Shown: piece by piece, positions 42,608 to 62,788 of the stretch
Position numbering within the stretch: position 1 is the first letter of the stretch
Layout of the letters: each line of letters starts with the position of its first letter
Assembly (NCBI GenBank): GCA_021806235.1
Contig: JAJZXU010000012.1
Coordinates: 1 to 62,961 of the forward strand
Origin: Thermoplasmata archaeon
GTDB taxonomy: Archaea > Thermoplasmatota > Thermoplasmata > Thermoplasmatales > Thermoplasmataceae
DNA: 62,961 nucleotides
Direction of reading: 5' to 3'
Notes under the pieces: model-generated
Databases searched by the model: none
What the model saw: the letters and a program-made list of their open reading frames with translations, nothing else
Told to the model about the DNA's origin: nothing
Translations under genes and position numbers: made by a program

Positions 42608-42705
42608 CTTTTCAATCCTATTAAGGTTCTATTTTAACGAAGTTCTAACTTTCAACCTTATTAAGGTTCTATTCTCTTTCAATCCCATTCGGGTTCCATT
42701 TTAAC
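42608..42705 (-). CRISPR. Three vestigial CRISPR repeats of a different variant
   Basis: Units at 42608-42638, 42649-42673 (truncated) and 42676-42705 share both ends with the main repeat (CTTTCAAT and ATTTTAAC) but have a different core (CCTATTAAGGTTCT, and CCCATTCGGGTTCC in the third). The gaps between them are 10 and 2 bases, far shorter than a normal spacer. They lie 245 bases beyond the leader-distal end of the array. They look like the decayed tail of an older array. Confidence 0.7.
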
Positions 42706-42949: not shown

Positions 42950-44171
42950 CTTTCAATTCCTACATGGAATTATTTTAACTTGATCCTGGCTATCATCATT
43001 CCAGGCCTGGCACTCTTCTTTCAATTCCTACATGGAATTATTTTAACGGAAAAGAAGAGACTGATAGCAATCCGGGAAAAATCCTTTCAATTCCTACATG
43101 GAATTATTTTAACTGATTCATTAAAGTGAGTATTTTGCCCGTGCTTACCCTTTCAATTCCTACATGGAATTATTTTAACTTTTTTTCATAAGATAATTTT
43201 AGTTCGGTATATTCCTTTCAATTCCTACATGGAATTATTTTAACTAGTAGGATTAGTGATATCAGTAGTCAGTATAGGTCTCTTTCAATTCCTACATGGA
43301 ATTATTTTAACCGGCATATCCATAGAAATTACTGAAAATTTCCTGTTTCTTTCAATTCCTACATGGAATTATTTTAACTTTTTGTCAGATCAGATGTAAA
43401 TACTGATAAATATTTCTTTCAATTCCTACATGGAATTATTTTAACACACTAAAATCATCGTCAAAAAATACAGTAGATATACCTTTCAATTCCTACATGG
43501 AATTATTTTAACATAGATTTATTTAATTCAGGAAATGAATATATAAGGCTTTCAATTCCTACATGGAATTATTTTAACTAATACAGATGTATCTATAAAA
43601 ATTTATATGGCTAACTTTCAATTCCTACATGGAATTATTTTAACATACAGGCTTCGGATATACAGTAGAGGTAAAAAAACTTTCAATTCCTACATGGAAT
43701 TATTTTAACTCAAAAGGTTGTACGCGGATCCGCGTGGGTCACCGTCTTTCAATTCCTACATGGAATTATTTTAACAACCCGCCCCTCAGCCACAACGGTT
43801 GTGTTGAATATCTTTCAATTCCTACATGGAATTATTTTAACTATAACAATATTATGGATAGTGAGAGTACAGTTGTGCCTTTCAATTCCTACATGGAATT
43901 ATTTTAACCGGCTCAATTTCTGAGGCTGCACCGTCCCTTTCATCCTTTCAATTCCTACATGGAATTATTTTAACAAATATTGATATTTCAAAATATATTA
44001 GTGATGAAATCTTTCAATTCCTACATGGAATTATTTTAACAATAAAACTGAAACTGTTCAGGGACTATTATTGAGCTTTCAATTCCTACATGGAATTATT
44101 TTAACTAGAAAAGATGACGAATATATGAGTTTATTACTGAACTTTCAATTCCTACATGGAATTATTTTAAC

Positions 44172-47100
44172 TGAAATGTAAAATCTGTGATTATGAAACT
44201 GAAAGTACTTTCAATTCCTACATGGAATTATTTTAACTTGTCGCATACAAATTAGCTCCGGAACGGGCAAAAATCTTTCAATTCCTACATGGAATTATTT
44301 TAACTTTTCCCTCAGGGAATGAGAAGACTGCGGCTCCGCTGACTTTCAATTCCTACATGGAATTATTTTAACTGCGCGTTTATACAATTATCTAATTCAG
44401 AAAGACATCTTTCAATTCCTACATGGAATTATTTTAACTTATTTACAACAACTGTTAATGCACCTGCACCTCCACCTTTCAATTCCTACATGGAATTATT
44501 TTAACGAATTTTATCATCATGTAAAAACAGTCCATATAACCTTTCAATTCCTACATGGAATTATTTTAACTTATACAGGCTTCAGATAATCATTAGAGGT
44601 AAAATACTTTCAATTCCTACATGGAATTATTTTAACAAATACTATTTCTACAAATGATAAAGGAATATCATACTTTCAATTCCTACATGGAATTATTTTA
44701 ACTTTTTCCCAACGATGTAGTAGAGATAAAACTTTACAGCTTTCAATTCCTACATGGAATTATTTTAACTCTGTAAATCAGGACAATCTGTTAGTTTCAG
44801 GCGTGCTTTCAATTCCTACATGGAATTATTTTAACTTGTAATCGGAAAGATGGGTGTCTGGAACGGTGATATCTTTCAATTCCTACATGGAATTATTTTA
44901 ACTTGATAATGACAGCCGAATATATTCAAACTGAATCAAGCTTTCAATTCCTACATGGAATTATTTTAACTATGAAATGTCAGATATGTGATTATGAATC
45001 TGAAAATACTTTCAATTCCTACATGGAATTATTTTAACCCCCCGAACCAGGTTCTCCAACCCTGGAAGATTATTCCTTTCAATTCCTACATGGAATTATT
45101 TTAACCAGGTGTGGTGGACGGTACTGCAATCGGCTCAACGATCTTTCAATTCCTACATGGAATTATTTTAACCAGTTATATAACTGTTTATGAAAATAAA
45201 TATAACGCTTTCAATTCCTACATGGAATTATTTTAACGAGGAAGGGAATTGAGCGATATATGTGCCTGTTCCCCTTTCAATTCCTACATGGAATTATTTT
45301 AACTGAACAGTCCGATAAATTACTATTGATTGGTTATTCCTTTCAATTCCTACATGGAATTATTTTAACTGTGGAACTGATTCCGATATCGTTCTCTGTA
45401 AGTTCTTTCAATTCCTACATGGAATTATTTTAACGATAGTTCTCAGATTGTAAGAGGATATAAGGAAAAAAACTTTCAATTCCTACATGGAATTATTTTA
45501 ACTTCGAGGTAAATTTGACATAATCGCTTGGAGAAAATCCTTTCAATTCCTACATGGAATTATTTTAACATTAGATTAGGATGAAAATCATAAAAATGCT
45601 TTTTTACTTTCAATTCCTACATGGAATTATTTTAACAGTGACATCTTTCTGAATTCCTGAGACGGCTGATTCAACTTTCAATTCCTACATGGAATTATTT
45701 TAACTAATCAGGTAAATGAGGTTGCCTTAAAATCTTACCGCTTTCAATTCCTACATGGAATTATTTTAACTACCTGGTCGGAAATAAAATAATAATATCA
45801 GGTACCCTTTCAATTCCTACATGGAATTATTTTAACTGAAAATCGATTTTGCGCGGCTGATTATTGTGTCGATCTTTCAATTCCTACATGGAATTATTTT
45901 AACATGCCCCGGGGACCGTGAAACCGTACATTCCTGAGAGCTTTCAATTCCTACATGGAATTATTTTAACATACAAAATGTCGGGAATTAGGTGTATTGC
46001 GGGTTTCTTTCAATTCCTACATGGAATTATTTTAACGTTTTATAATTGTTCAGGGATTATTATTGAGTGGATGCTTTCAATTCCTACATGGAATTATTTT
46101 AACTTATACAATTAATAGATCATCAGTAGAGGGAAAAGAAAACTTTCAATTCCTACATGGAATTATTTTAACTTATATATACCTGTTAGAATAAAACTGA
46201 GATTATTCCTTTCAATTCCTACATGGAATTATTTTAACTTGGAAAGTATCAGTGGGAATTAATACTTCTTATCGTCTTTCAATTCCTACATGGAATTATT
46301 TTAACATTCGGTCAGCACAAAGGACATTTTGAGATTATTCCTTTCAATTCCTACATGGAATTATTTTAACCGTAAAAGTCAGTTGATTGCAGCTTACTCA
46401 TCGAATCTGCTTTCAATTCCTACATGGAATTATTTTAACAGAATTCATGAAATTCGTAAATCCGGTTGTAAGAGACTTTCAATTCCTACATGGAATTATT
46501 TTAACACGCACCAGGCTTGCCGACTTTCACCTGCTTGAAAAACTTTCAATTCCTACATGGAATTATTTTAACACATTTTCACGGTTCATCAGGGCATCCA
46601 GATTCCCGCTTTCAATTCCTACATGGAATTATTTTAACTAAAAGAGTATTTGTAACAGAAGCTGTTTCAATCGACTTTCAATTCCTACATGGAATTATTT
46701 TAACTACAAAGCATACATCCGTTACATCAACATATAATAACTTTCAATTCCTACATGGAATTATTTTAACGAGAGGGAAAGGCTAAATCAGATTGAGAAA
46801 AGTAACTTTCAATTCCTACATGGAATTATTTTAACATGGGAATCGTGTTTTTAATAATGGTACTGTTACTTGCTTTCAATTCCTACATGGAATTATTTTA
46901 ACTAGTAGGATTAGTGATATCAATCATCAGTCTAAGTTTCTTTCAATTCCTACATGGAATTATTTTAACTTATATAATTAATAGATAATGAATAGAAGTG
47001 AAAAAACTTTCAATTCCTACATGGAATTATTTTAACTTTAATAGCCTATATAAATGGCAACAAAAATTTTACTTTCAATTCCTACATGGAATTATTTTAA

Positions 47101-47899
47101 CTAAAATTAAATCATGTGATAAACGGTTACCGGTTCTGCTTTCAATTCCTACATGGAATTATTTTAACTTTTTTGTTAAATCAGATATAAATATCGATAA
47201 ATATTCTTTCAATTCCTACATGGAATTATTTTAACTTTTTAGTACGTGGAAAATAAACTATTTCATCGTACTTTCAATTCCTACATGGAATTATTTTAAC
47301 CTGTTCAGGGACTGTTATTTTATGAATTGAATAAAAACCTTTCAATTCCTACATGGAATTATTTTAACCATTCACTGTTTATCAGACTATCATAATCCCG
47401 CCAGGCCTTTCAATTCCTACATGGAATTATTTTAACTTCCAGTGGGAAAAGTCGGTGTGTGGAACGCTGACTTCTTTCAATTCCTACATGGAATTATTTT
47501 AACGAACACAAATTATTAAACAGTATCTCAACAAATGATGCCTTTCAATTCCTACATGGAATTATTTTAACTTTTCAGTGCCCCCTCGACTGCGGAAAAC
47601 AGTCAACTTTCAATTCCTACATGGAATTATTTTAACTCGAAGTTCAGGTCGAATATAGTGCCCGCAAGCTCCTTTCAATTCCTACATGGAATTATTTTAA
47701 CATAAATATTATTATCACATTATTAATATAAATGTCCTTTCAATTCCTACATGGAATTATTTTAACCCTGTTCGGTCATCTGTTTGTCGCGTACAAATTA
47801 GCTCCTTTCAATTCCTACATGGAATTATTTTAACGTGAATATACAGTAAGTCCACCGTCAGGCAAACGCCTTTCAATTCCTACATGGAATTATTTTAAC
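44172..47899. repeat. Tandem duplication in the array, unit 1 (56 spacer-repeat units)
   Basis: 3,728 bases starting with the spacer TGAAATGTAAAATCTGTGAT... and ending with the repeat after spacer GTGAATATACAGTAAG. Every spacer recurs in the same order at +3,728. No difference was seen by eye. Confidence 0.9.
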
Positions 47900-50800
47900 T
47901 GAAATGTAAAATCTGTGATTATGAAACTGAAAGTACTTTCAATTCCTACATGGAATTATTTTAACTTGTCGCATACAAATTAGCTCCGGAACGGGCAAAA
48001 ATCTTTCAATTCCTACATGGAATTATTTTAACTTTTCCCTCAGGGAATGAGAAGACTGCGGCTCCGCTGACTTTCAATTCCTACATGGAATTATTTTAAC
48101 TGCGCGTTTATACAATTATCTAATTCAGAAAGACATCTTTCAATTCCTACATGGAATTATTTTAACTTATTTACAACAACTGTTAATGCACCTGCACCTC
48201 CACCTTTCAATTCCTACATGGAATTATTTTAACGAATTTTATCATCATGTAAAAACAGTCCATATAACCTTTCAATTCCTACATGGAATTATTTTAACTT
48301 ATACAGGCTTCAGATAATCATTAGAGGTAAAATACTTTCAATTCCTACATGGAATTATTTTAACAAATACTATTTCTACAAATGATAAAGGAATATCATA
48401 CTTTCAATTCCTACATGGAATTATTTTAACTTTTTCCCAACGATGTAGTAGAGATAAAACTTTACAGCTTTCAATTCCTACATGGAATTATTTTAACTCT
48501 GTAAATCAGGACAATCTGTTAGTTTCAGGCGTGCTTTCAATTCCTACATGGAATTATTTTAACTTGTAATCGGAAAGATGGGTGTCTGGAACGGTGATAT
48601 CTTTCAATTCCTACATGGAATTATTTTAACTTGATAATGACAGCCGAATATATTCAAACTGAATCAAGCTTTCAATTCCTACATGGAATTATTTTAACTA
48701 TGAAATGTCAGATATGTGATTATGAATCTGAAAATACTTTCAATTCCTACATGGAATTATTTTAACCCCCCGAACCAGGTTCTCCAACCCTGGAAGATTA
48801 TTCCTTTCAATTCCTACATGGAATTATTTTAACCAGGTGTGGTGGACGGTACTGCAATCGGCTCAACGATCTTTCAATTCCTACATGGAATTATTTTAAC
48901 CAGTTATATAACTGTTTATGAAAATAAATATAACGCTTTCAATTCCTACATGGAATTATTTTAACGAGGAAGGGAATTGAGCGATATATGTGCCTGTTCC
49001 CCTTTCAATTCCTACATGGAATTATTTTAACTGAACAGTCCGATAAATTACTATTGATTGGTTATTCCTTTCAATTCCTACATGGAATTATTTTAACTGT
49101 GGAACTGATTCCGATATCGTTCTCTGTAAGTTCTTTCAATTCCTACATGGAATTATTTTAACGATAGTTCTCAGATTGTAAGAGGATATAAGGAAAAAAA
49201 CTTTCAATTCCTACATGGAATTATTTTAACTTCGAGGTAAATTTGACATAATCGCTTGGAGAAAATCCTTTCAATTCCTACATGGAATTATTTTAACATT
49301 AGATTAGGATGAAAATCATAAAAATGCTTTTTTACTTTCAATTCCTACATGGAATTATTTTAACAGTGACATCTTTCTGAATTCCTGAGACGGCTGATTC
49401 AACTTTCAATTCCTACATGGAATTATTTTAACTAATCAGGTAAATGAGGTTGCCTTAAAATCTTACCGCTTTCAATTCCTACATGGAATTATTTTAACTA
49501 CCTGGTCGGAAATAAAATAATAATATCAGGTACCCTTTCAATTCCTACATGGAATTATTTTAACTGAAAATCGATTTTGCGCGGCTGATTATTGTGTCGA
49601 TCTTTCAATTCCTACATGGAATTATTTTAACATGCCCCGGGGACCGTGAAACCGTACATTCCTGAGAGCTTTCAATTCCTACATGGAATTATTTTAACAT
49701 ACAAAATGTCGGGAATTAGGTGTATTGCGGGTTTCTTTCAATTCCTACATGGAATTATTTTAACGTTTTATAATTGTTCAGGGATTATTATTGAGTGGAT
49801 GCTTTCAATTCCTACATGGAATTATTTTAACTTATACAATTAATAGATCATCAGTAGAGGGAAAAGAAAACTTTCAATTCCTACATGGAATTATTTTAAC
49901 TTATATATACCTGTTAGAATAAAACTGAGATTATTCCTTTCAATTCCTACATGGAATTATTTTAACTTGGAAAGTATCAGTGGGAATTAATACTTCTTAT
50001 CGTCTTTCAATTCCTACATGGAATTATTTTAACATTCGGTCAGCACAAAGGACATTTTGAGATTATTCCTTTCAATTCCTACATGGAATTATTTTAACCG
50101 TAAAAGTCAGTTGATTGCAGCTTACTCATCGAATCTGCTTTCAATTCCTACATGGAATTATTTTAACAGAATTCATGAAATTCGTAAATCCGGTTGTAAG
50201 AGACTTTCAATTCCTACATGGAATTATTTTAACACGCACCAGGCTTGCCGACTTTCACCTGCTTGAAAAACTTTCAATTCCTACATGGAATTATTTTAAC
50301 ACATTTTCACGGTTCATCAGGGCATCCAGATTCCCGCTTTCAATTCCTACATGGAATTATTTTAACTAAAAGAGTATTTGTAACAGAAGCTGTTTCAATC
50401 GACTTTCAATTCCTACATGGAATTATTTTAACTACAAAGCATACATCCGTTACATCAACATATAATAACTTTCAATTCCTACATGGAATTATTTTAACGA
50501 GAGGGAAAGGCTAAATCAGATTGAGAAAAGTAACTTTCAATTCCTACATGGAATTATTTTAACATGGGAATCGTGTTTTTAATAATGGTACTGTTACTTG
50601 CTTTCAATTCCTACATGGAATTATTTTAACTAGTAGGATTAGTGATATCAATCATCAGTCTAAGTTTCTTTCAATTCCTACATGGAATTATTTTAACTTA
50701 TATAATTAATAGATAATGAATAGAAGTGAAAAAACTTTCAATTCCTACATGGAATTATTTTAACTTTAATAGCCTATATAAATGGCAACAAAAATTTTAC

Positions 50801-51627
50801 TTTCAATTCCTACATGGAATTATTTTAACTAAAATTAAATCATGTGATAAACGGTTACCGGTTCTGCTTTCAATTCCTACATGGAATTATTTTAACTTTT
50901 TTGTTAAATCAGATATAAATATCGATAAATATTCTTTCAATTCCTACATGGAATTATTTTAACTTTTTAGTACGTGGAAAATAAACTATTTCATCGTACT
51001 TTCAATTCCTACATGGAATTATTTTAACCTGTTCAGGGACTGTTATTTTATGAATTGAATAAAAACCTTTCAATTCCTACATGGAATTATTTTAACCATT
51101 CACTGTTTATCAGACTATCATAATCCCGCCAGGCCTTTCAATTCCTACATGGAATTATTTTAACTTCCAGTGGGAAAAGTCGGTGTGTGGAACGCTGACT
51201 TCTTTCAATTCCTACATGGAATTATTTTAACGAACACAAATTATTAAACAGTATCTCAACAAATGATGCCTTTCAATTCCTACATGGAATTATTTTAACT
51301 TTTCAGTGCCCCCTCGACTGCGGAAAACAGTCAACTTTCAATTCCTACATGGAATTATTTTAACTCGAAGTTCAGGTCGAATATAGTGCCCGCAAGCTCC
51401 TTTCAATTCCTACATGGAATTATTTTAACATAAATATTATTATCACATTATTAATATAAATGTCCTTTCAATTCCTACATGGAATTATTTTAACCCTGTT
51501 CGGTCATCTGTTTGTCGCGTACAAATTAGCTCCTTTCAATTCCTACATGGAATTATTTTAACGTGAATATACAGTAAGTCCACCGTCAGGCAAACGCCTT
51601 TCAATTCCTACATGGAATTATTTTAAC
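47900..51627. repeat. Tandem duplication in the array, unit 2
   Basis: Identical in order and, as far as I can see, in sequence to 44172-47899. Unequal recombination between identical repeats would create this, as would an assembly error. The next spacer (from 51628) is new. Confidence 0.9.
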
Positions 51628-54600
51628 ATGCCTTTGAATTTCCATTCGGATATATAGATATCTGCTTTCAATTCCTACATGGAATTATTTTAACGTGTGG
51701 CAATACTGGCAGGCCAGGAGGCTGTGGACAAACTTTCAATTCCTACATGGAATTATTTTAACAAATGGTGACCCGCGTGGAAACGCGTACAACCTTCCTT
51801 TCAATTCCTACATGGAATTATTTTAACATTATGAGATATATTATTTGAAAGGTGATAATTAACTTTCAATTCCTACATGGAATTATTTTAACCAGAATAT
51901 TGAAATCGTAAAAAAAGGTGAATAAAAACTTTCAATTCCTACATGGAATTATTTTAACTCAGATGGCATCTGATATTAGCGGTTTAAAAAATACTTTCAA
52001 TTCCTACATGGAATTATTTTAACTATAAAGTAGTGTAATAAATGATCCTACATGCTTTCCGCCTTTCAATTCCTACATGGAATTATTTTAACTGAATTTC
52101 CTAAACCTGTTAATCCCGTTGTGAGGCCTTTCAATTCCTACATGGAATTATTTTAACAATTTTAAAAAATTTTAAAAAAATTCAAATAAATAACTTTCAA
52201 TTCCTACATGGAATTATTTTAACTTGTTCTTTCCTGTTCTTTCCTCATCTGCCTATATTTCCTTTCAATTCCTACATGGAATTATTTTAACTTCTTTTAC
52301 TATTATCTGACCACTTTTATTTTTATACTTTCAATTCCTACATGGAATTATTTTAACCATAAGTGTCCCTCTAAAACGCTCACATGGTGTGTCTTTCAAT
52401 TCCTACATGGAATTATTTTAACTAGAAAAGATGACGAATATATGAGTTTATTACTGACCTTTCAATTCCTACATGGAATTATTTTAACTATCGACTTATC
52501 AACAACGCTTGCCGTCGATGTAGCGGCCTTTCAATTCCTACATGGAATTATTTTAACATGTTTTACCGGCAGTAAAAAAATTTTATGAATCGCTTTCAAT
52601 TCCTACATGGAATTATTTTAACATAGAACTAATTCCATACATATCGCTGATTTTATTCTTTCAATTCCTACATGGAATTATTTTAACTTTCAGTTCTGTA
52701 TATTCAGGTAAATCTAATTTCTGAATCTTTCAATTCCTACATGGAATTATTTTAACCTATGTATATTCAAATGAAGTATTAGAACTGTATGTCTTTCAAT
52801 TCCTACATGGAATTATTTTAACAAGACCACAATAGCCTATATCCTAAAATCTTGCATCTTTCAATTCCTACATGGAATTATTTTAACGAGTATAAACCTA
52901 TTGCAGGACGCATTTTTAGCAGCTTTCAATTCCTACATGGAATTATTTTAACGGGATAAAATTTTTATCAGGGGGGTACAGCTCAGTGCTTTCAATTCCT
53001 ACATGGAATTATTTTAACTTATGGCTGATCTGAGAAGCCGGAATACTGTCTAAACTTTCAATTCCTACATGGAATTATTTTAACTTTCATGCAGGATTTT
53101 CAGAATATCGCAAAAAATCCTTTCAATTCCTACATGGAATTATTTTAACCAGATTTGGAACGAAAAACGTGAAGGTGTTATAAAACTTTCAATTCCTACA
53201 TGGAATTATTTTAACTTTTTTTATGATCAAAAATACTTACATTGTTAGAAGACTTTCAATTCCTACATGGAATTATTTTAACTAAGGATATCCTTCTCAG
53301 AGGCAGGCACCTGTTTATCTTTCAATTCCTACATGGAATTATTTTAACTGAGCCAGATTACAAGCGGTTCTCCAACGGGCACAACTTTCAATTCCTACAT
53401 GGAATTATTTTAACCTGATAGCGGTCTACGTATTTTAAGGTGAGAAAATGTCACTTTCAATTCCTACATGGAATTATTTTAACGCATACAGTTCAAGGGA
53501 TTTGTATGCCGCGTCGATCTTTCAATTCCTACATGGAATTATTTTAACCTGCCAGGGACTGTTATTTTATGAATTGAATAAAATTCTTTCAATTCCTACA
53601 TGGAATTATTTTAACTGTCAGAAAAACCTTTAATAATGATCCTGATCCTGCTTTCAATTCCTACATGGAATTATTTTAACGATTTTCTCAGTTTTTCTGT
53701 CAGCTATTCTGAGATCCTTTCAATTCCTACATGGAATTATTTTAACAATAATAGCAATTCTAACAGATAAGTCTCAGGAAACTCCTTTCAATTCCTACAT
53801 GGAATTATTTTAACTATCCATAAATTTCAGAATCATATAGATGAACTTCTCTTTCAATTCCTACATGGAATTATTTTAACTATTTATGGTTGTCCCCCAT
53901 GCATTATCTACATTTATCTTTCAATTCCTACATGGAATTATTTTAACTTGACGGTCCGCGTATCGACATACAGCAATCGAATTTCTTTCAATTCCTACAT
54001 GGAATTATTTTAACTAGAAATAACATTAGAACCACTGAGCGAGTTTACAACCTTTCAATTCCTACATGGAATTATTTTAACCACAGGAATCGTCCTGATA
54101 GCGGTCTATGTGTTCTGCTTTCAATTCCTACATGGAATTATTTTAACTGGTCAGGTGTATCAGGCTGGGTCGGAAAGTATCAGCTTTCAATTCCTACATG
54201 GAATTATTTTAACTTTTGACTGTAACGGATAATTAAAGTCGAAATATATCTTTCAATTCCTACATGGAATTATTTTAACTTTTTATTAAATATAACCAAT
54301 AATTTTTTAGTACGCTTTCAATTCCTACATGGAATTATTTTAACCCGGATAATAATCAGATAGTTGAAAGGCAGGAATCTTTCAATTCCTACATGGAATT
54401 ATTTTAACTAATGAATTCTGATACAACCCTGAGAAGTGATTATCTTTCAATTCCTACATGGAATTATTTTAACGAAGTTCAATCAAAAAACACTTTTACA
54501 GTTATCATGCTTTCAATTCCTACATGGAATTATTTTAACTATTCGACCTGAACTTCGACCTGATCGTAATGATTCCTTTCAATTCCTACATGGAATTATT

Positions 54601-54805
54601 TTAACTAGTCATGGAGTACTTGAGTACAGTCTCCGCGTAGAGACCTTTCAATTCCTACATGGAATTATTTTAACTATATGATTAAAATGTCATCGAATAA
54701 AAACATAATACTTTCAATTCCTACATGGAATTATTTTAACGATTTCTATCTGTATTCGAATGAGGTGTTAGGATTCTTTCAATTCCTACATGGAATTATT
54801 TTAAC

Positions 54806-54972
54806 CCATTTTACAATATTAAGAATAACATTGCAATTAACTATATTAATTTTTAAATTTTAAAAATGTTTTAATTTTAAAAATTTTTAAAAAAATATCT
54901 ATTATATAAAAAACTTTCTATTATTTTTCAGCCCATGTATTTAAATAAATACAAAAGTTGGGCATTCCAGAT
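54806..54972 (-). promoter_or_regulatory. CRISPR leader
   Basis: 167 AT-rich bases between cas2 and the youngest repeat. It contains the inverted repeat TGTATTTA-AA-TAAATACA (54936-54953) and long A/T tracts. Position, composition and orientation fit a leader with the array promoter and the integration signals for Cas1-Cas2. Confidence 0.75.
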
Positions 54973-55236
54973 TTATATTATGTTAGAAAATTCTTTTTTT
55001 GGTTTTCCAATAATGTACGAATCCAAATATTTATCTGAATCCATAGAATAAATTTTAATAAAATCATATTCTGGATCTGTATGTTTATTTATAAATGCTT
55101 TTATTCTAATCAATTGCGATTCTGTTATTTCGCCTTCAAATACTGAATTTTGCACCCAGTTTACAAATCTTTTAAGAAATTTCCTTATCGTATTTATCCT
55201 ATATACATTTATATCATAAACTATTATAACATACAT
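54973..55236 (-). CDS. cas2: CRISPR-associated endoribonuclease-fold protein Cas2
   Basis: 87 residues, normal size. The N-terminus YVIIVYDINVYRINTIRKFL has the conserved Asp8 of the ferredoxin-like fold, and NWVQNSVFEGEITESQLIRI is the second hallmark (Q-x-S-V-F-E-G). Cas2 dimers bridge two Cas1 dimers in the spacer integrase. The start has GGTGG 5 bases upstream and only one base separates it from cas1. It is the last gene of the operon, directly before the leader. Confidence 0.95.
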   Translation of the reverse strand: MYVIIVYDINVYRINTIRKFLKRFVNWVQNSVFEGEITESQLIRIKAFINKHTDPEYDFIKIYSMDSDKYLDSYIIGKPKKEFSNII

Positions 55237-55237
55237 T

Positions 55238-56221
55238 TTACCACCATATGATAAAGGGTTTATATGTATTTATACCAAGTAAGTGTTTTTCAAGTTTATA
55301 TATCTCTAATCTTATTAACTCCTGATAGCTTACATTCTTTTTTAAACTTCTGTGTAATATGTGTTCATTTAATTTTTGCTCATAATATGTTAAATAAAGT
55401 TTCTTTCCCTTTTCATTCAAAAAAGTTTTTCCCAAATCAGAATCGAAATGTGTTTCATTAATTATTTTTTTATTTACCAAAAATAAAAATAATCTATGTG
55501 ATATAATTGGTTTAAATATTTCAGATATATCAAGGGAAAGTGAAAACCGTCTCTCTGATGGTTCATGCAAAAATGATATTGTGGGATTTAGGTGTGTATT
55601 ATATATTTCTGTGAGAACGGAAGCATAAACCAAACTATTGCCAAAAGAGATCAATGAATTTGAAATATTTGTTGGTGGCCTTCTTTCCCTTTTTATGATT
55701 TTATATTTATCATCTAAAATTGAATCTAATGCATTAAAATATGCATTATGTCCTCTTCCTTCTACCCCCATTAATTCACTAATTGACTTTGACGCTTCTA
55801 TATTATTTATTTCTTTTTTTATTAGTTCCATATTCTTATATATAGAATCATTTTTATATGAAGATAAAATTCTATTAAAGTTATGCAATGCACCGGAAAC
55901 AAAGGATCGTGCAATTTCCATTCTTAGGTCTAAATTTATATAGTATTTTGTCTGCCTTATAATTATATCGCCCGATACGTCTTTTTCCTTTGGCCATAAT
56001 GTCGCCTCATAGTTCCCATAATAACCAAAAAAATGTACTGGAATTCCAAATTTGGAAATGCTAGATATAAATCCTGATGATAATGATAGAGGCTTGTGCG
56101 CATATATTGCCCTTACATTTTCTATTGGTATTGCATTTTTTCCGCTAGAATTTTTTATTATTATCGTTCCGCCATCGATATTTATATCACCTTCATGTAT
56201 TATATGGTAATCTGTTTTCAT
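55238..56221 (-). CDS. cas1: CRISPR integrase Cas1
   Basis: 327 residues from the ATG at 56221, preceded by the ribosome site GGTGTTAAAA; a GTG three codons upstream is the alternative. The metal-binding residues are Glu154 in LMGVEGRGHNAYF, His219 in SFLHEPSERRFS and Asp231 with Glu234 in LSLDISEIFKP. With Cas2 it inserts new spacers at the leader end. The gene overlaps or abuts the end of cas4 and is followed by cas2 after 1 base. Confidence 0.97.
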   Translation of the reverse strand: MKTDYHIIHEGDINIDGGTIIIKNSSGKNAIPIENVRAIYAHKPLSLSSGFISSISKFGIPVHFFGYYGNYEATLWPKEKDVSGDIIIRQTKYYINLDLRMEIARSFVSGALHNFNRILSSYKNDSIYKNMELIKKEINNIEASKSISELMGVEGRGHNAYFNALDSILDDKYKIIKRERRPPTNISNSLISFGNSLVYASVLTEIYNTHLNPTISFLHEPSERRFSLSLDISEIFKPIISHRLFLFLVNKKIINETHFDSDLGKTFLNEKGKKLYLTYYEQKLNEHILHRSLKKNVSYQELIRLEIYKLEKHLLGINTYKPFIIWW

Positions 56222-56223
56222 TT

Positions 56224-56727
56224 TTAACACCAGCAGAAATCAAAATATGCACATGATTTGCAGTAGTTTTTATGTTCCGGCAGTGGCATTTTATTATTAA
56301 CCACCTTATTTATGCCATTAAGTATATCATTAATCATGTTCTTGCCATCGTCATCTAAATATATTTTCTTATGCCTGTTTGTTTCCGGATAATCTAAGAA
56401 ACCTATTGCATTAATTCCAAGGCTATCAAAATTAGATAAATAATATAATACTTGGGCAATATGTGCTTTTTCAAGTTTGTTTGATTTCTTTATTTCGTGC
56501 ACTTCCAATGTATTATCTTTGCGTATAAAATCCAATTTTATATTTAGAAAATCCACCTCTTTTTTTTCATTTTTATATGTGTTTTTATGTATCTCTTTTC
56601 CAATTTTTACATTTTCATTCCCGGATTCCATATATATGTGATGATAAAATAACCACAGTTTTGTTTTACATACTACATAATACGAGACCTCCACCCCAGT
56701 AAACATTTCATTTCTATCTGAAAGCAT
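56224..56727 (-). CDS. cas4: CRISPR-associated exonuclease Cas4
   Basis: 167 residues, the short Cas4 type of I-B systems. The RecB-like nuclease core shows His47, Asp66 and the E-x-K of VHEIKKSNKLEKAHIAQVLY (Glu78, Lys80). The four iron-sulfur cysteines are Cys20 (YYVVCKTKLW) and Cys156, Cys159 and Cys165 in YCKSCAYFDFCWC. Cas4 trims prespacers and selects the PAM side. The gene starts 3 bases after the end of cas3 and its end overlaps the cas1 start region. Confidence 0.95.
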   Translation of the reverse strand: MLSDRNEMFTGVEVSYYVVCKTKLWLFYHHIYMESGNENVKIGKEIHKNTYKNEKKEVDFLNIKLDFIRKDNTLEVHEIKKSNKLEKAHIAQVLYYLSNFDSLGINAIGFLDYPETNRHKKIYLDDDGKNMINDILNGINKVVNNKMPLPEHKNYCKSCAYFDFCWC

Positions 56728-56730
56728 TAT

Positions 56731-58923
56731 TTATATAATATTTCCATCAATATTAATTTTTTCATAGTTTACACCACAGGAACTATTATAATCAAAATCA
56801 AAATAATACATATTGTTATTGTCATTAAAATTTTTTATATGGGCTTTTGTTTTATAGGTGTACGGAATATTTACAGAATAGGATAAATATTTTCTCCAAC
56901 CGTCATAATATGATTTTTGAAATTCATTGTAAATATCATTATAATATTTAGATGGTATGGCAAGTATTTTCGGGTAGTCTGAACATCTTATTAAATTATG
57001 CCTATCCGCAATAAGTTCTGAAATATTTAATTTATAAACACTTTTAACTTTATTCCTTATATCATTTAAGTAACTTTCTACTTCATTATATTTTTTTTCA
57101 AGTGCATCTCTATAATCATCATTATATGTATAATTAATAATATCTTTTGCTTCCTTATTGCTTATATATTTATAATTTTTAAAAAAATTGTATGAAGCTT
57201 CGACATATTTTTTGTCGTATATATATTCTGAGTTCTCTTCCCATTTGTATATGTATATCTGTGCATTTTCCTTTTTTCCATATCTATTTACCCTGCCAAA
57301 CCTCTGTATTAATGAGTCTGGTGGTGCAGATTCTGTTATCAATGCATCATAATCTATGTCAAGACTTACTTCTGCAATCTGAGTGCATACAGCTATTATT
57401 TTTTTACTATTTGATATTTCACTCATTTTATCCTGCCTATCTTTATATATAAATTGACTGTGGAAAAGCACAATTTCTATGCCGTTTATTCCATCTTGCG
57501 CCATTTGAAATATTTTTTTTGCTGTTCCTATTGTGTTTACTATAATAAGTATTTTATCAAACGACTTTATTAATTCCTTTAATTTGGAAATACATAATAA
57601 AATATTTTCACCCATAACTGTAATTTTACTTTTATATTTATGCACAAAATCAAATTTTTTATAAGAAAATTTAACCCCTGATTTTTGCTTTATAAAATCT
57701 ATGAGTGATTCTGGAATTGTAGCACTCATAATTAATATATTACTGTTAAATTTAGAAATTTCACTTATAAATTTTACGATGTGTGAGGTTGTCCTATAAT
57801 CATATGCGTGTATTTCATCAAATATGATGCCAGAAATATATGAGTTAAATAATATACTATCCCATCTATTTATGTTATATAGTGAATACAGTATTTGATC
57901 AACGGTTGAAACCATTACAGGCATAAAAAATGTTTTTGAATAAAGTTTCGAAAAATCATCATTTTTACCTGGATCACTAGGATCCATAATTAAATCAGAT
58001 GTGCTATGTAAAATGCCAACACTATTAAATATTTTTTTTAGCCTGAAATAAACTTCATTGCTCGTATTCATTGTTGGGAGTATATAAAATATCTTATTGC
58101 TATTATTTTTTGCCCATAACAGTGAGGCTTCTGTTTTACCACTTCCAGTTGTACTTTCAATAATCGTACTCCCCTTAACTGTTTTTGTATATTCCTGCAG
58201 GGCATTAAGGCCCTTAAAATTTTCCTTGGATTTTAAATATTCATAAATCTTATTACCATAATTTATAAAAAAATTAATTTTGTTTCCTGAACTGGATGAC
58301 CAGTCACAGAAATGCAAAATGTTTTCCATCAGTGCATATATTATTCTAAGTTGTTCCCTGTCATTTTTATTTAAATTTTCGATGCTATGATGAATGTTTT
58401 TTATTATAAAACTATTGTAATCTTTTGGTTCTACATTTTTGTTAAAATATATTTTTTTATTTAAAACACTGTTTATTTTATTTTCTGTAAATTTAATAAA
58501 ATCAGTATCATCGCATAGATTTAAATTTGACAGATTTGAGTTTTTTTTAAATAAATTGCTGCCAAGCATTGAATGATGCGATAATGCACACAGTGATGCC
58601 ATGTTTATATTAAATATTGGATTATTATAATTATAGTATAATTTAATAGCCGATATTAGTGCATGGGGCAACGCCTTTTTATTTATATCTTCATTCATTT
58701 TTTCCTGAAATGACAGGTCATGTTTTCCATAATCATGGAATAAAACAGAGATAAAACTATTTTCCCAGAAAATTTCTGGATTTACATTAATATTTTTTAT
58801 GCCATTATCTATGATATTATCAATTTTATCTTTTAATATATTATAGTTATATATACACTGTTCAGTATGTTCTGTTAATGCCTGTTTATTTGATTTTGCT
58901 ATTATTTTATCGCAGTATGACAT
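56731..58923 (-). CDS. cas3: Cas3 HD nuclease-helicase
   Basis: 730 residues from the ATG at 58923, which has GGAG 6 bases before it; a start five codons earlier is possible. Positions here count from that earlier start. The HD domain has EHTEQ (His24), LFHDYGKHD (His68-Asp69), PHALIS (His92) and LSHHS (121-122). The helicase has Walker A STTGSGKTE (262-270), DEIH (374-377), the MSATIPE motif and QRFGRVNRYG. It unwinds and degrades target DNA recruited by Cascade. The gene overlaps cas5 by 17 bases. Confidence 0.97.
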   Translation of the reverse strand: MSYCDKIIAKSNKQALTEHTEQCIYNYNILKDKIDNIIDNGIKNINVNPEIFWENSFISVLFHDYGKHDLSFQEKMNEDINKKALPHALISAIKLYYNYNNPIFNINMASLCALSHHSMLGSNLFKKNSNLSNLNLCDDTDFIKFTENKINSVLNKKIYFNKNVEPKDYNSFIIKNIHHSIENLNKNDREQLRIIYALMENILHFCDWSSSSGNKINFFINYGNKIYEYLKSKENFKGLNALQEYTKTVKGSTIIESTTGSGKTEASLLWAKNNSNKIFYILPTMNTSNEVYFRLKKIFNSVGILHSTSDLIMDPSDPGKNDDFSKLYSKTFFMPVMVSTVDQILYSLYNINRWDSILFNSYISGIIFDEIHAYDYRTTSHIVKFISEISKFNSNILIMSATIPESLIDFIKQKSGVKFSYKKFDFVHKYKSKITVMGENILLCISKLKELIKSFDKILIIVNTIGTAKKIFQMAQDGINGIEIVLFHSQFIYKDRQDKMSEISNSKKIIAVCTQIAEVSLDIDYDALITESAPPDSLIQRFGRVNRYGKKENAQIYIYKWEENSEYIYDKKYVEASYNFFKNYKYISNKEAKDIINYTYNDDYRDALEKKYNEVESYLNDIRNKVKSVYKLNISELIADRHNLIRCSDYPKILAIPSKYYNDIYNEFQKSYYDGWRKYLSYSVNIPYTYKTKAHIKNFNDNNNMYYFDFDYNSSCGVNYEKINIDGNII

Positions 58924-59611
58924 CCAGATCTCCATCATTTATAGCAGTGAATTCCTTATTTATGTTAATTGAAATTTTGATATCCCCTATAAACGTTATA
59001 TCATAAAAATTAATAGGTACTCTATAATCTTTTTCTAAAGAAAATGCTGATGGCACATGGTAATTCGTAAATGGTGTTATGTTCCCATTATTTACATCTT
59101 CTATATCGAAATCATCTATTTTAAACGGAATAACAGTATTTGATATTGTTATTTTTCCATTTTTGAGCAATTCTTTATTTATTATTTCAACATTTTTTAT
59201 ATTTATAATTTCTGATGCTTTCCCAAGATATAATGCAAAAACAGGATTTTTTAAATACTCATAAATTTTATGCAATAATTTATTTTCTGTATAAACATAT
59301 ATAATATAATTGTTTTCATAATTCATTTGTCTCTGTAACTGGCTTATTTCCGGGTATTTTTCTCCCTTAAACTTATATAATGTAATAAGATCATAGTATC
59401 TTGACAGTGTTTTACCTGTTATTCCAACCATTATATTACTGTACATATAATGTATATAGCTACTTGACCTTTCGATCCCCATCGCAGCGGCCATCATTCC
59501 TATTATATGTGTTTTCATTGGTAATGGAAATGTATCATGCACTGTCATGTGTAATGGAATCCTAAAAGAATTTGAAAGCCCATGAGCGTTAATCTTTATT
59601 AATTCTGCCAT
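58907..59611 (-). CDS. cas5: Cascade subunit Cas5 (type I-B)
   Basis: 234 residues, RAMP fold. The N-terminus KINAHGLSNSFRIPLHMTVH and DTFPLPMKTHIIGMMAAAMG is the Cas5 signature in which the first part binds the crRNA 5' handle and the second forms the G-rich helix. The start has AGGTAATATTA before it and lies within the last 23 bases of cas7. It is the backbone subunit capping the 5' end of crRNA in Cascade. Confidence 0.92.
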   Translation of the reverse strand: MAELIKINAHGLSNSFRIPLHMTVHDTFPLPMKTHIIGMMAAAMGIERSSSYIHYMYSNIMVGITGKTLSRYYDLITLYKFKGEKYPEISQLQRQMNYENNYIIYVYTENKLLHKIYEYLKNPVFALYLGKASEIINIKNVEIINKELLKNGKITISNTVIPFKIDDFDIEDVNNGNITPFTNYHVPSAFSLEKDYRVPINFYDITFIGDIKISININKEFTAINDGDLDVILR

Positions 59612-60506
59612 TAATATTACCTATTTCCATATTATCTATATCGCTGTATATTTTATCAAATGCATCACTTACATCTCCGGAATAATAATCCAATTCCCTT
59701 AGTTTATCAATATTATTAATAAATGAATCTACCCCAATTATCCTACTTTTTTTAATCTCGTTTGATGATTTTATGCCATCTTTTAATAAGTCTATATTTA
59801 TATTGTAATCTTCATCAATAGATATATAATCTAGAAGGCTTGGTTTTTTAATAATCTGTGATTGATATATAAAAAATTTCGGAGATGCATCTGATAAAAG
59901 CCTGCTCTGTTTTCCACCACCCCATAGATACTGATAGCTTCTAACAACTGCTTTTATTCTATCTCTCCTCTGGACAATATCAAGTTCCCTGTCATCAAAG
60001 ATACCCACACGATCTGCTTCAATTAAAATTGTATATGTATACCAGTTTGCCGACATTTCCGTTTCATAGAATCTATTTGGTTTATTTATTTCATTATTGT
60101 TTTGAAGTCCTAAATCCCTTTCAAAATTGTATGGGAAGAGTGAAATTGCCGGTGATACGCGAACTGGGCTAATTCTAGATATTGCAGTATTTCCCTTGCC
60201 ACCTGTTTTCATATAGCCATACACATCGTCATCTATATATTTATATGGATCACATTCCGTTGGTATTGGCTGTTTGTCATTTTTAATTTCTTCTGGTTTT
60301 TTGTTTGAAATTGCATAGCCAAACGATTTTAGCTGGTTTCTGCTCATTCTTCTTAATGCTTGGCCACTTATATACGATCGCATAGACGAATCGGGTAGCC
60401 TGATTTTTTTTATCGTTGAAATAATATCCTCATTCCAGCCACTGTTCAAATTGCCATCAATTTTAATTAAACTACTCAATGTTATACAATTTATTTTATC
60501 ATTCAT
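59589..60506 (-). CDS. cas7: Cascade backbone subunit Cas7 (Cst2/DevR family)
   Basis: 305 residues from the ATG at 60506, which has AGGTGTTAAAA just before it, a site nearly identical to that of cas1. NCITLSSLIKIDGNLNSG and SSMRSYISGQALRRMSRNQL are characteristic of the Cst2/DevR branch of Cas7. Several copies coat the crRNA in Cascade. The gene overlaps cas8 by 8 bases and cas5 by 23 bases, so the Cascade genes are translationally coupled. Confidence 0.93.
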   Translation of the reverse strand: MNDKINCITLSSLIKIDGNLNSGWNEDIISTIKKIRLPDSSMRSYISGQALRRMSRNQLKSFGYAISNKKPEEIKNDKQPIPTECDPYKYIDDDVYGYMKTGGKGNTAISRISPVRVSPAISLFPYNFERDLGLQNNNEINKPNRFYETEMSANWYTYTILIEADRVGIFDDRELDIVQRRDRIKAVVRSYQYLWGGGKQSRLLSDASPKFFIYQSQIIKKPSLLDYISIDEDYNINIDLLKDGIKSSNEIKKSRIIGVDSFINNIDKLRELDYYSGDVSDAFDKIYSDIDNMEIGNINGRINKD

Positions 60507-62055
60507 TTTTAACACCTATATTTTCATTTTTTTTATTTTCATTTTTAAAAAATTCTTGGTGTGCAAATATGGATATAAGAGACTTTATATCCTGCCAATT
60601 ACTGTTATTAATATTTTTTAGGAAATCAATGTTTATAAATAAATCCTTTATTTTAAATGTTGCCCCGTCAAAGAAATTAAGAAGTTGTGTTGTACTTGTG
60701 CATTCTCTTAATGAATAAAGCATATCTTTGTCTGCGGGATTATCCTCGTCTCCTCTACAATATTTCCCTATTGAAACACCTATACCATAGCATTTTTTAA
60801 TTAAATTTTCATCCATTTTTATCGCCTCCTTATTATATATTATTAAAAATTTATTTAAATCTTTCTTATATTTATCCACATTTTGCTTTATATTTTCATA
60901 GTAGAACTCTTCTACCGCTCTATTTACGTCCTCAAAAAATATTATCCTTCTGGATATCTCGTTTTTATAATAATCTACCGTTGAACTGTTAATATATATA
61001 TTAAATTTGTTTAAAAATTGCGGTAATATAATACTTTCTTTATTAAATTGATTTATTAAATTAAATAATTGATACGTATCACTATAAGTGTAAACATTTG
61101 TTATTAGGTTCTTCTTCGCATGACCCAAAAACCACGATGTATTTATAATTGATTTCTTAAGCCCTTCTGGTGTATCATTATCAATATCTAATTTTAGGTC
61201 ATTGTTTAATTTGTCATTTAAATAATAAATCAATTCAATAAATGGCTGGAATGTGCCTGAAGCTTTTATCTTGCTGAAGTTTGTGTAATCGCTTATAGCG
61301 GCCGTACCTGTAATGCTTGTTATATAATTCCATATATTGTTTTTATTTGAATTAATAACAGGGAAAGAGAAAAAAATTTCACTATCTGTAATTACAAACG
61401 GCATATACCTGTAAACAACAAAACATGATAATGCACATGCTATACATATATTAAGGCTTCTTTGCATGTTGCTATTAAAATTTCTATACTTGGTTAAGCT
61501 TGCAGTAAATGGATAATAGTTTTTGTTTATTTTGTCGGTTTCCAAGCATTGATCGCAAAAATCACATTTATTTTTATTTTTAAATTTTGATAAATTCATA
61601 AGGGGAAATTCTGTTTGCTGCCTATATATTCTTGCATCTTTATTTAGTTTTTTTAATTTTTCATCATATTCTGTCTTTTGATCATTGTCCAAACTATTAA
61701 TATCGATCTTTACCCTTTTGCTTGCGCCAATAGGTGTTGGGTAAACACCTTTGATAAAAAAATTCATCAGTGCTGAAAGGCTTAATCTGTCTATTAATTC
61801 CAGTTTATTATCGTTATTTAACAGAAAATCTTTATTTTTTCTCCTTATATAATTATTTTCAAGTCTATTTACAATACATTGAAAAAATTTTTTTAAATCA
61901 TCATAATTTTCATATGAAAACGATAATTCATTATTGTTACAATATACATTAAAGCTTTTCGGATCAATAGTTTCGTCGTCTATATATTTAAAAATAAGTA
62001 GGGAACCATTATATATAAGTGGATCGGTTGATTTTCCAAAATAAATTTTATTCAT
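60499..62055 (-). CDS. cas8b1: Cascade large subunit Cas8b1 (Cst1, CXXC-CXXC)
   Basis: 518 residues from the ATG at 62055, with GGAGGG a dozen bases upstream; an earlier start at 62085 would lie inside cas6. The family mark is two cysteine pairs: CDFCDQC and CIACALSC, which presumably bind zinc. Cst1 defines the Tneap variant of type I-B. The subunit recognises the PAM and starts R-loop formation. The sequence is otherwise poorly conserved and Asn/Lys-rich like the rest of the locus. Confidence 0.9.
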   Translation of the reverse strand: MNKIYFGKSTDPLIYNGSLLIFKYIDDETIDPKSFNVYCNNNELSFSYENYDDLKKFFQCIVNRLENNYIRRKNKDFLLNNDNKLELIDRLSLSALMNFFIKGVYPTPIGASKRVKIDINSLDNDQKTEYDEKLKKLNKDARIYRQQTEFPLMNLSKFKNKNKCDFCDQCLETDKINKNYYPFTASLTKYRNFNSNMQRSLNICIACALSCFVVYRYMPFVITDSEIFFSFPVINSNKNNIWNYITSITGTAAISDYTNFSKIKASGTFQPFIELIYYLNDKLNNDLKLDIDNDTPEGLKKSIINTSWFLGHAKKNLITNVYTYSDTYQLFNLINQFNKESIILPQFLNKFNIYINSSTVDYYKNEISRRIIFFEDVNRAVEEFYYENIKQNVDKYKKDLNKFLIIYNKEAIKMDENLIKKCYGIGVSIGKYCRGDEDNPADKDMLYSLRECTSTTQLLNFFDGATFKIKDLFINIDFLKNINNSNWQDIKSLISIFAHQEFFKNENKKNENIGVKNE

Positions 62056-62788
62056 TAGTAACGCCCTCCAGAAGGCCAAAACCAAATTTTAATTTTGACC
62101 CTATACCAATATCATTGATAAATTCCTTTACCTTCGAGTTTGTATTAAGTTCTAATTTTCCAGCAGTGCATAAATATCTCTGATTTTTAATTTTAATATA
62201 TTTAGAATAAAAATCTTTTGAGTTTAAATTTACATTTATATAATCAACAGAATCTCCAGTGAAAAATTCATATCTGCTTTTTATACTTTTTATTAATGTA
62301 TCTTTCCATAGTTCTATATCAGCTTCTGTACTTTTATTATCTATATAAACATATTGGTATTTATCTTTAAAAAGCTGATTTTTTAATTTTAATATTATTG
62401 GGCTAACTGTCTGAAACCTGTTTATGTTTTCAAGATTTTGCTCATAAATCCTCATATTTACAACTGAATATTTTGTATATGTTTTATTGTTTGTTATTGA
62501 AATCAATGGCTTTTTTAAAAATCCCTTAATAGACTTTAATATAAATTCTTTATCTGGAGACGATATGAAAAGTATTCCGCGTTTTATATATAAATTATTA
62601 TTTTTTATATATGAATGACCCAGTATATTGCTAAAATTAAATATATGGTGAGGATCATCATGAAACTCTTTTGAAAGTGCCCGGTCCACATTTTCTAAAT
62701 TTTCCAATATAATGCCCCTAAGTGATTCATTATAATTAAATCCTAGGGGTGAATTTGAAAAATTATATAGATTAAGCTCCAGTCTCAT
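62048..62788 (-). CDS. cas6: crRNA-processing endonuclease Cas6
   Basis: 246 residues. The C-terminal glycine-rich loop GIGSKLKFGFGLLE (about 226-239) is the Cas6 hallmark, and the first strand MRLELNLYNFSNSPLGFNYN fits the N-terminal ferredoxin fold. It cuts the repeat RNA 8 bases upstream of each spacer, leaving the ATTGAAAG handle. It is the first gene of the operon; the start at 62788 follows the TATA box at leaderless distance. The end overlaps the cas8 start by 8 bases. Confidence 0.92.
   Translation of the reverse strand: MRLELNLYNFSNSPLGFNYNESLRGIILENLENVDRALSKEFHDDPHHIFNFSNILGHSYIKNNNLYIKRGILFISSPDKEFILKSIKGFLKKPLISITNNKTYTKYSVVNMRIYEQNLENINRFQTVSPIILKLKNQLFKDKYQYVYIDNKSTEADIELWKDTLIKSIKSRYEFFTGDSVDYINVNLNSKDFYSKYIKIKNQRYLCTAGKLELNTNSKVKEFINDIGIGSKLKFGFGLLEGVTNE

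What the first reader, a model, noticed from the sequence alone, without database searches (positions are those of the whole stretch)
44172..51627. Perfect tandem duplication of 56 spacer-repeat units in one CRISPR array
Two consecutive blocks of 3,728 bp carry the same 56 spacers in the same order, and I saw no sequence difference. In a natural array this would be one very recent unequal crossover between identical repeats and would show how whole spacer blocks are copied. It could also be a mis-assembly of an array with read-through repeats.
Basis: seen in the sequence. Interest (0 to 1): 0.8.

Follow-up and report, generated by a model that had tools for sequence, protein, structure and literature searches.

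The report
Doubled spacer block in CRISPR array
A long archaeal immune-memory array carries the same run of 56 virus-memory units twice in a row, letter for letter; this is probably a genuine copying accident of a known kind, but the genome was pieced together from short reads, so the doubling was inferred by software and no single read shows it.

Summary
Confirmed. The array at 42950-54805 (type I-B, Ferroplasma) has 179 identical 30-bp repeats and 178 spacers, 122 of them distinct. Spacers 19-74 recur as 75-130 in the same order with no mismatch over 3,728 bp. The match stops exactly at the repeat edges. Contig ends in this 37-contig genome share exact 127-bp overlaps, none longer, and contigs break inside the 16S and 23S rRNA genes. 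That is the signature of a short-read, k=127 de Bruijn, metagenome-like assembly. At k=127 the duplication is a simple loop, and its only independent evidence is 96 junction 127-mers (47774-47869, spacer 74|repeat|spacer 19). The 3,758-bp exact repeat is 2.3 times the next longest in the genome. The junction was therefore probably in the reads, but two head-to-tail copies were inferred by the assembler. Best reading: a real tandem duplication by exchange between two 30-bp repeats, a known CRISPR process of unusual size. Two copies, chromosomal linkage and fixation are unproven. Zero differences do not make it 'very recent'; ages up to about 10^5-10^6 generations fit. In 22 control arrays the largest duplicated block was 2 units. 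Raw reads would settle it.

The parts
42950..54805 (-). CRISPR array: 179 identical 30-bp repeats (crRNA sense GTTAAAATAATTCCATGTAGGAATTGAAAG), 178 spacers, 122 distinct; oldest end left, leader end right
   Evidence: orientation from the repeat 3' end ATTGAAAG, and from the leader and cas2-cas1 lying on the right
44172..47899 (-). Block copy A: spacers 19-74 with their following repeats (56 units)
47900..51627 (-). Block copy B: spacers 75-130, identical to copy A
47774..47995 (.). Novel junction spacer 74 | repeat 47870-47899 | spacer 19'. The 96 127-mers starting at 47774-47869 are the only sequence unique to the duplicated state
44142..44171 (-). Repeat between spacers 18 and 19: one inferred partner of the exchange
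51598..51627 (-). Repeat between spacers 130 (=74) and 131: the other inferred partner of the exchange
54806..54972 (-). Leader, A+T-rich, between the array and cas2
   Evidence: sequence; position inferred
54973..55236 (-). cas2 (87 aa)
55238..56230 (-). cas1 (type I-B)
   Evidence: TIGR03641, 1.3e-122; 69% to F. acidarmanus Fer1
56224..56727 (-). cas4
56731..58938 (-). cas3 (HD + helicase)
58907..59611 (-). cas5b
59589..60515 (-). cas7b
60499..62085 (-). cas8b
   Evidence: PDLC01582, 4.7e-34; no NCBIfam or Pfam hit
62048..62788 (-). cas6

Best explanation
This is a tandem duplication of 56 spacer-repeat units in the type I-B array of a Ferroplasma population. It was made by one exchange between the 30-bp repeat before spacer 19 and the 30-bp repeat after spacer 74, on sister chromosomes or by misalignment at a replication fork, turning an ancestral 122-spacer array into 178. 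The order, the identity and the boundaries are shown. The exchange is inferred, with only 30 bp of homology and no extension into the spacers. The adjacency 74|repeat|19 was probably in the reads. That there are exactly two copies, in one chromosome, in most cells, is the assembler's inference from a loop and is not shown. It is probably neutral or mildly dosage-altering, and should be unstable because 3.7-kb direct repeats recombine.
For: 56 spacers repeat in order with 0 of 3,728 mismatches, and the match ends exactly at repeat edges. A contig path in a de Bruijn graph needs its 96 junction 127-mers to be present in the graph, hence normally in reads. The array crosses the contig with no other branch or break, suggesting a fairly clonal locus. 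In a published benchmark SPAdes returned 2 copies of a tandem repeat longer than its insert size when the truth was 2, and mostly failed (0 copies) when the truth was 3-5 and the motif exceeded the insert (PMC6052550, Tables 5-6). Block duplications in CRISPR arrays are established and ascribed to recombination or replication misalignment between repeats (PMC8047081; PMC4390879; PMC7708916). If any pair of repeats in a 123-repeat ancestral array recombined with equal chance, blocks of 56 or more would be 30% of events.
Against: No read or mate is available. The block is 2.3 times longer than any other exact repeat in the genome, and the assembly is a short-read type. Fitted CRISPR deletion blocks are short (geometric, mean 2.7; PMC11472070); under that law a block of 56 or more has probability 9e-12. 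Among 22 arrays from relatives and other carriers of a similar cas1 the largest duplicated block was 2 units. No second strain with this array was found.
Confidence: 0.62

Rival explanations
1. Assembly artefact: one block exists. A false or trace junction (chimeric reads at the 30-bp repeat, or a join through the 30-bp overlap) created a loop, and the assembler walked it twice.
For: Contig ends overlap by exactly 127 bp and contigs break inside single rRNA genes, so this is a short-read assembly, probably from a metagenome. Another contig end, C8 right, also runs back into its own sequence. At k=33 or less the array is a tangle of false paths; 894 branch positions at k=33. 56 units is far outside the usual size range.
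Against: At k=127 there is a single clean loop and no other branch in 179 repeats. Random chimeras would give many different junctions, each rare, and would be trimmed. De Bruijn assemblers usually collapse repeats rather than expand them.
Confidence: 0.2
2. The junction is real but the physical state differs: three or more copies, a mixture of cells with one and two blocks, or an excised circle of the 56-unit block.
For: All these states give the same k=127 graph. 3.7-kb direct repeats would be expected to expand and collapse (established knowledge). The assembly looks population-derived.
Against: The SPAdes benchmark favours two copies when a long motif is resolved at all. The contig continues into unique sequence on both sides. 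No circle formed from a CRISPR block is known to me.
Confidence: 0.16
3. Two strains' arrays with different spacer order were stitched together, so the second block comes from another strain.
For: Natural acid-mine populations have highly variable CRISPR loci and recombining Ferroplasma (PMC2704941).
Against: Zero differences in 3,728 bp, no strain branches inside the array, and the order 74-then-19 would itself need a rearranged array.
Confidence: 0.02

Closest known systems
Spacer-block duplications in CRISPR arrays (reviewed in PMC8047081; Sulfolobales, PMC4390879)
   Same: Contiguous spacer-repeat units repeated in order, boundaries in repeats, interior of the array, ascribed to recombination or misalignment between repeats
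   Different: Here the block is 56 units and perfect. The evidence is one short-read draft assembly; no related strain shows the one-block state
Tandem DVR duplications in Mycobacterium tuberculosis (PMC7708916)
   Same: Tandem repeat of several repeat-spacer units, recognised by a spacer having two successors and by doubled read counts
   Different: Those span 1 to about 8 units and were checked from reads; here 56 units and no reads
Duplications reconstructed by SpacerPlacer in CRISPRCasdb (PMC11472070)
   Same: Duplications are the main complex event (86% of duplication candidates; candidates are 3% of spacers)
   Different: Fitted blocks for deletions are short (geometric, mean 2.7 spacers); 56 units lies far outside that law
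Simple tandem-repeat loop in a de Bruijn assembly (PMC6052550)
   Same: One entry, one exit and a return edge; found here at k=127
   Different: The published simulated cases have motifs of 500 bp or less; here 3,728 bp

Membership tests
Type I-B CRISPR-Cas system | cas8b signature protein | tested here: met
   PDLC01582 Cas8b 4.7e-34; NCBIfam and Pfam silent
Type I-B CRISPR-Cas system | cas3, cas5b, cas6, cas7b effector and processing genes in one operon | tested here: met
Type I-B CRISPR-Cas system | cas4-cas1-cas2 adaptation genes beside a leader and array | tested here: met
Type I-B CRISPR-Cas system | interference activity and PAM | not testable with these tools
   no protospacer found in viral contigs
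Tandem spacer-block duplication by recombination between repeats | same spacers, same order, head to tail | tested here: met
Tandem spacer-block duplication by recombination between repeats | block boundaries fall within repeats | tested here: met
   exact match is 3,728 + 30 bp
Tandem spacer-block duplication by recombination between repeats | novel junction present in molecules, with doubled block depth | not testable with these tools
   no reads held; needs raw data
Tandem spacer-block duplication by recombination between repeats | sister strain with a single block | tested here: inconclusive
   no genome in the genus shares the array; only one genome per species is held
Tandem spacer-block duplication by recombination between repeats | block size within the usual range (descriptive, not strictly defining) | tested here: inconclusive
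   56 units is outside it: fitted mean 2.7 for deletions, maximum of 2 in 22 control arrays; but no size limit defines the class
De Bruijn short-read assembly loop | contig ends overlap by exactly k | tested here: met
   23 overlaps of exactly 127 bp, four of 126, none longer
De Bruijn short-read assembly loop | one entry, one exit, one return edge at that k | tested here: met
   branching only at 44142=47870 and 47773=51501
De Bruijn short-read assembly loop | no long reads spanning the block | tested here: inconclusive
   contigs break inside rRNA genes and at a 363-bp shared stretch, yet exact repeats of 1.0-1.6 kb were carried inside contigs

The most novel reading that the evidence does not exclude
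The 56-unit tandem duplication is real and carried by most cells. It arose by long-range unequal exchange between sister arrays, a route distinct from the short local slippage (mean about 2.7 units) that dominates known array changes, so large CRISPR arrays can double half their memory in one step.
Probability: 0.35. Interest if true: 0.5.

Novelty: new member of a known kind. Interest (0 to 1): 0.3.

Why it matters
If the reads confirm it, a one-step copy of 56 spacers would show that array change is not limited to short slippage, and would give a defined junction for measuring how fast such blocks expand and collapse. If they do not, it is a warning that array lengths and duplications taken from short-read assemblies can be decided by loop handling in the assembler; here 96 k-mers carry the entire claim.

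Tried and rejected
Independent re-acquisition of the spacers: rejected, 56 in identical order. A second copy of the array elsewhere in the genome: none, all 179 repeats are on C20 (one search count, scan of all contigs). Protospacers in viral contigs, to see what the array targets: six patterns were tried; five gave nothing and the single hit (L164) has G+C 50% and only an 18-bp match, so it is chance. The repeat core was absent from viral contigs. Extended homology at the junction: none beyond 30 bp. Megablast self-comparison missed the block, so exact k-mer matching was used. Papers naming the source or how it was sequenced: not identified. Searches for papers on unequal crossing or large or segmental duplication of spacer blocks returned none. 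The script stopped with an error after its first two results; the age bound was recomputed.

Full report
WHAT IS THERE. The window is a whole contig (C20, 62,961 bp) of a 1.93-Mb, 37-contig genome. Its cas1 is 69% identical to that of Ferroplasma acidarmanus Fer1, a 1,935,211-bp record, and the genome search places a closed 1,935,211-bp genome in the same genus as the window, so this is a Ferroplasma genome. The array spans 42950-54805 with 179 repeats, all identical, and 178 spacers of 34-39 bp, of which 122 are distinct. On the right lie an A+T-rich leader of about 170 bp and an operon reading leftwards: cas6-cas8b-cas7b-cas5b-cas3-cas4-cas1-cas2. This is a complete type I-B set. The array is therefore read on the minus strand; spacer 178 is the newest and spacer 1 the oldest (inference from leader position).

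THE DUPLICATION. Spacers 19-74 and 75-130 are identical in sequence and order. The two 3,728-bp blocks have no mismatch, and the exact match extends over one extra 30-bp repeat and no further. Independent acquisition is excluded by the order. The boundaries are what an exchange between the repeat before spacer 19 and the repeat after spacer 74 would leave, but they are also what any false join through the repeat would leave.

HOW THE SEQUENCE WAS MADE. I fetched the whole genome in stretches and put its contigs together. Contig ends share exact overlaps of 127 bp, 23 cases plus four of 126, and none longer. The single 16S gene is cut at model position 930 and the 23S gene at 1546 and 2680. This is what a k=127 de Bruijn assembly of short reads gives, most likely from a mixed community, where conserved rRNA branches the graph. 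One contig has a run of ten N. The 3,758-bp exact repeat is far longer than the next ones: 1,641, 1,296, 1,018 and 1,001 bp. Some of those were carried inside contigs, so I cannot exclude a library with longer range; but breaks at a 363-bp shared stretch argue against useful long reads.

WHAT THE GRAPH SAYS. Built from the contig at k=127, the array has branch points only at 44142=47870 and 47773=51501: one entry, one exit, one return edge. Everything that separates 'two blocks' from 'one block' is 96 127-mers starting at 47774-47869, over the junction spacer 74 | repeat | spacer 19. Such k-mers must have been in the graph, so reads probably held that junction. How often the loop is walked is decided by the assembler. 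In a published test SPAdes restored two copies of motifs longer than the insert when two were true, and mostly returned none when three to five were true (PMC6052550). That favours two copies here, if the assembler was SPAdes, which is itself an inference.

IS THE SIZE PLAUSIBLE? Duplications are a known class of array change: 3% of spacers are duplication candidates, 86% of those simple duplications (PMC11472070). They are inferred to come from recombination or replication misalignment between repeats (PMC8047081; PMC4390879). In M. tuberculosis they reach about eight units and are recognised by exactly the two read-level signs proposed below (PMC7708916). The fitted length law for deletions, geometric with mean 2.7, would give 56 or more with probability 9e-12. 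If instead any two repeats of a 123-repeat array could recombine with equal chance, 30% of events would be that long. So, if real, this block argues for long-range exchange and against local slippage. In the 22 other arrays examined, from relatives and other carriers of a similar cas1, six had at least one duplicated spacer, but the longest duplicated block was two units.

AGE. With no difference in 3,728 bp, the 95% upper bound on time since copying or homogenisation is about 2x10^5, 8x10^5 or 4x10^6 generations for assumed rates of 2x10^-9, 5x10^-10 or 10^-10 per base per generation. 'Very recent' is not required by the data. The event came after spacer 130 was acquired; at most 48 spacers were added afterwards.

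FUNCTION. Nothing suggests a new mechanism. Doubling would double template dosage for 56 crRNAs that lie far from the leader. No target was found for any tested spacer. The most likely status is a neutral, unstable rearrangement (inference).

VERDICT. Observation confirmed; interpretation partly supported; a new, unusually large member of a known kind if real (0.62), with an assembly artefact (0.2) and other physical states of the same junction (0.16) as the live rivals. Raw reads decide it.

Noticed in passing
window 51695-51732 (spacer 132); G000:C28:35925-35962 (L130:15925-15962): Spacer 132 is a perfect 38/38 match to a chromosomal gene of the same genome that looks like a thiolase: a self-targeting spacer, two units leader-side of the second block. 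In crRNA sense the flank on the PAM side is ...TTAAA; the PAM of this system is unknown.
   Followed up: partly
window 44106-44141 and 52423-52458 (spacers 18 and 143): Two spacers, 125 units apart, differ only at the last base, which is the PAM-proximal first base in crRNA sense. This could be re-acquisition from a virus variant changed at that base, or an old duplication with one mutation.
   Followed up: partly
spacer pairs 5/60, 19/31, 66/160, 7/64, 11/25: Related but non-identical spacers keep the same PAM-proximal register (exactly in three pairs, within one base in two), suggesting that the same protospacer sites were sampled again from diverged relatives of the same virus.
   Followed up: partly
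window 42609-42705: Three degenerate copies of a different CRISPR-type repeat (e.g. CTTTTCAATCCTATTAAGGTTCTATTTTAAC), close to the repeat of a 133-repeat array in a congener (G004), lie about 245 bp beyond the old end of the array: probably the relic of an older array type.
   Followed up: partly
window 42950-54805: All 179 repeats are identical, including the trailer-end ones, which are usually degenerate; the true old end may have been lost or the array homogenised.
   Followed up: no
L161:7596-11458 (G055): Control array in which spacers 24-25 recur as 32-33 and spacer 18 is repeated as 19 (zero-based count): a small-scale example of the same kind of duplication.
   Followed up: no
G000:C8 right end (198554): This contig end runs 1,947 bp past a 127-mer and then returns to it: another unresolved loop in the same assembly.
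   Followed up: no
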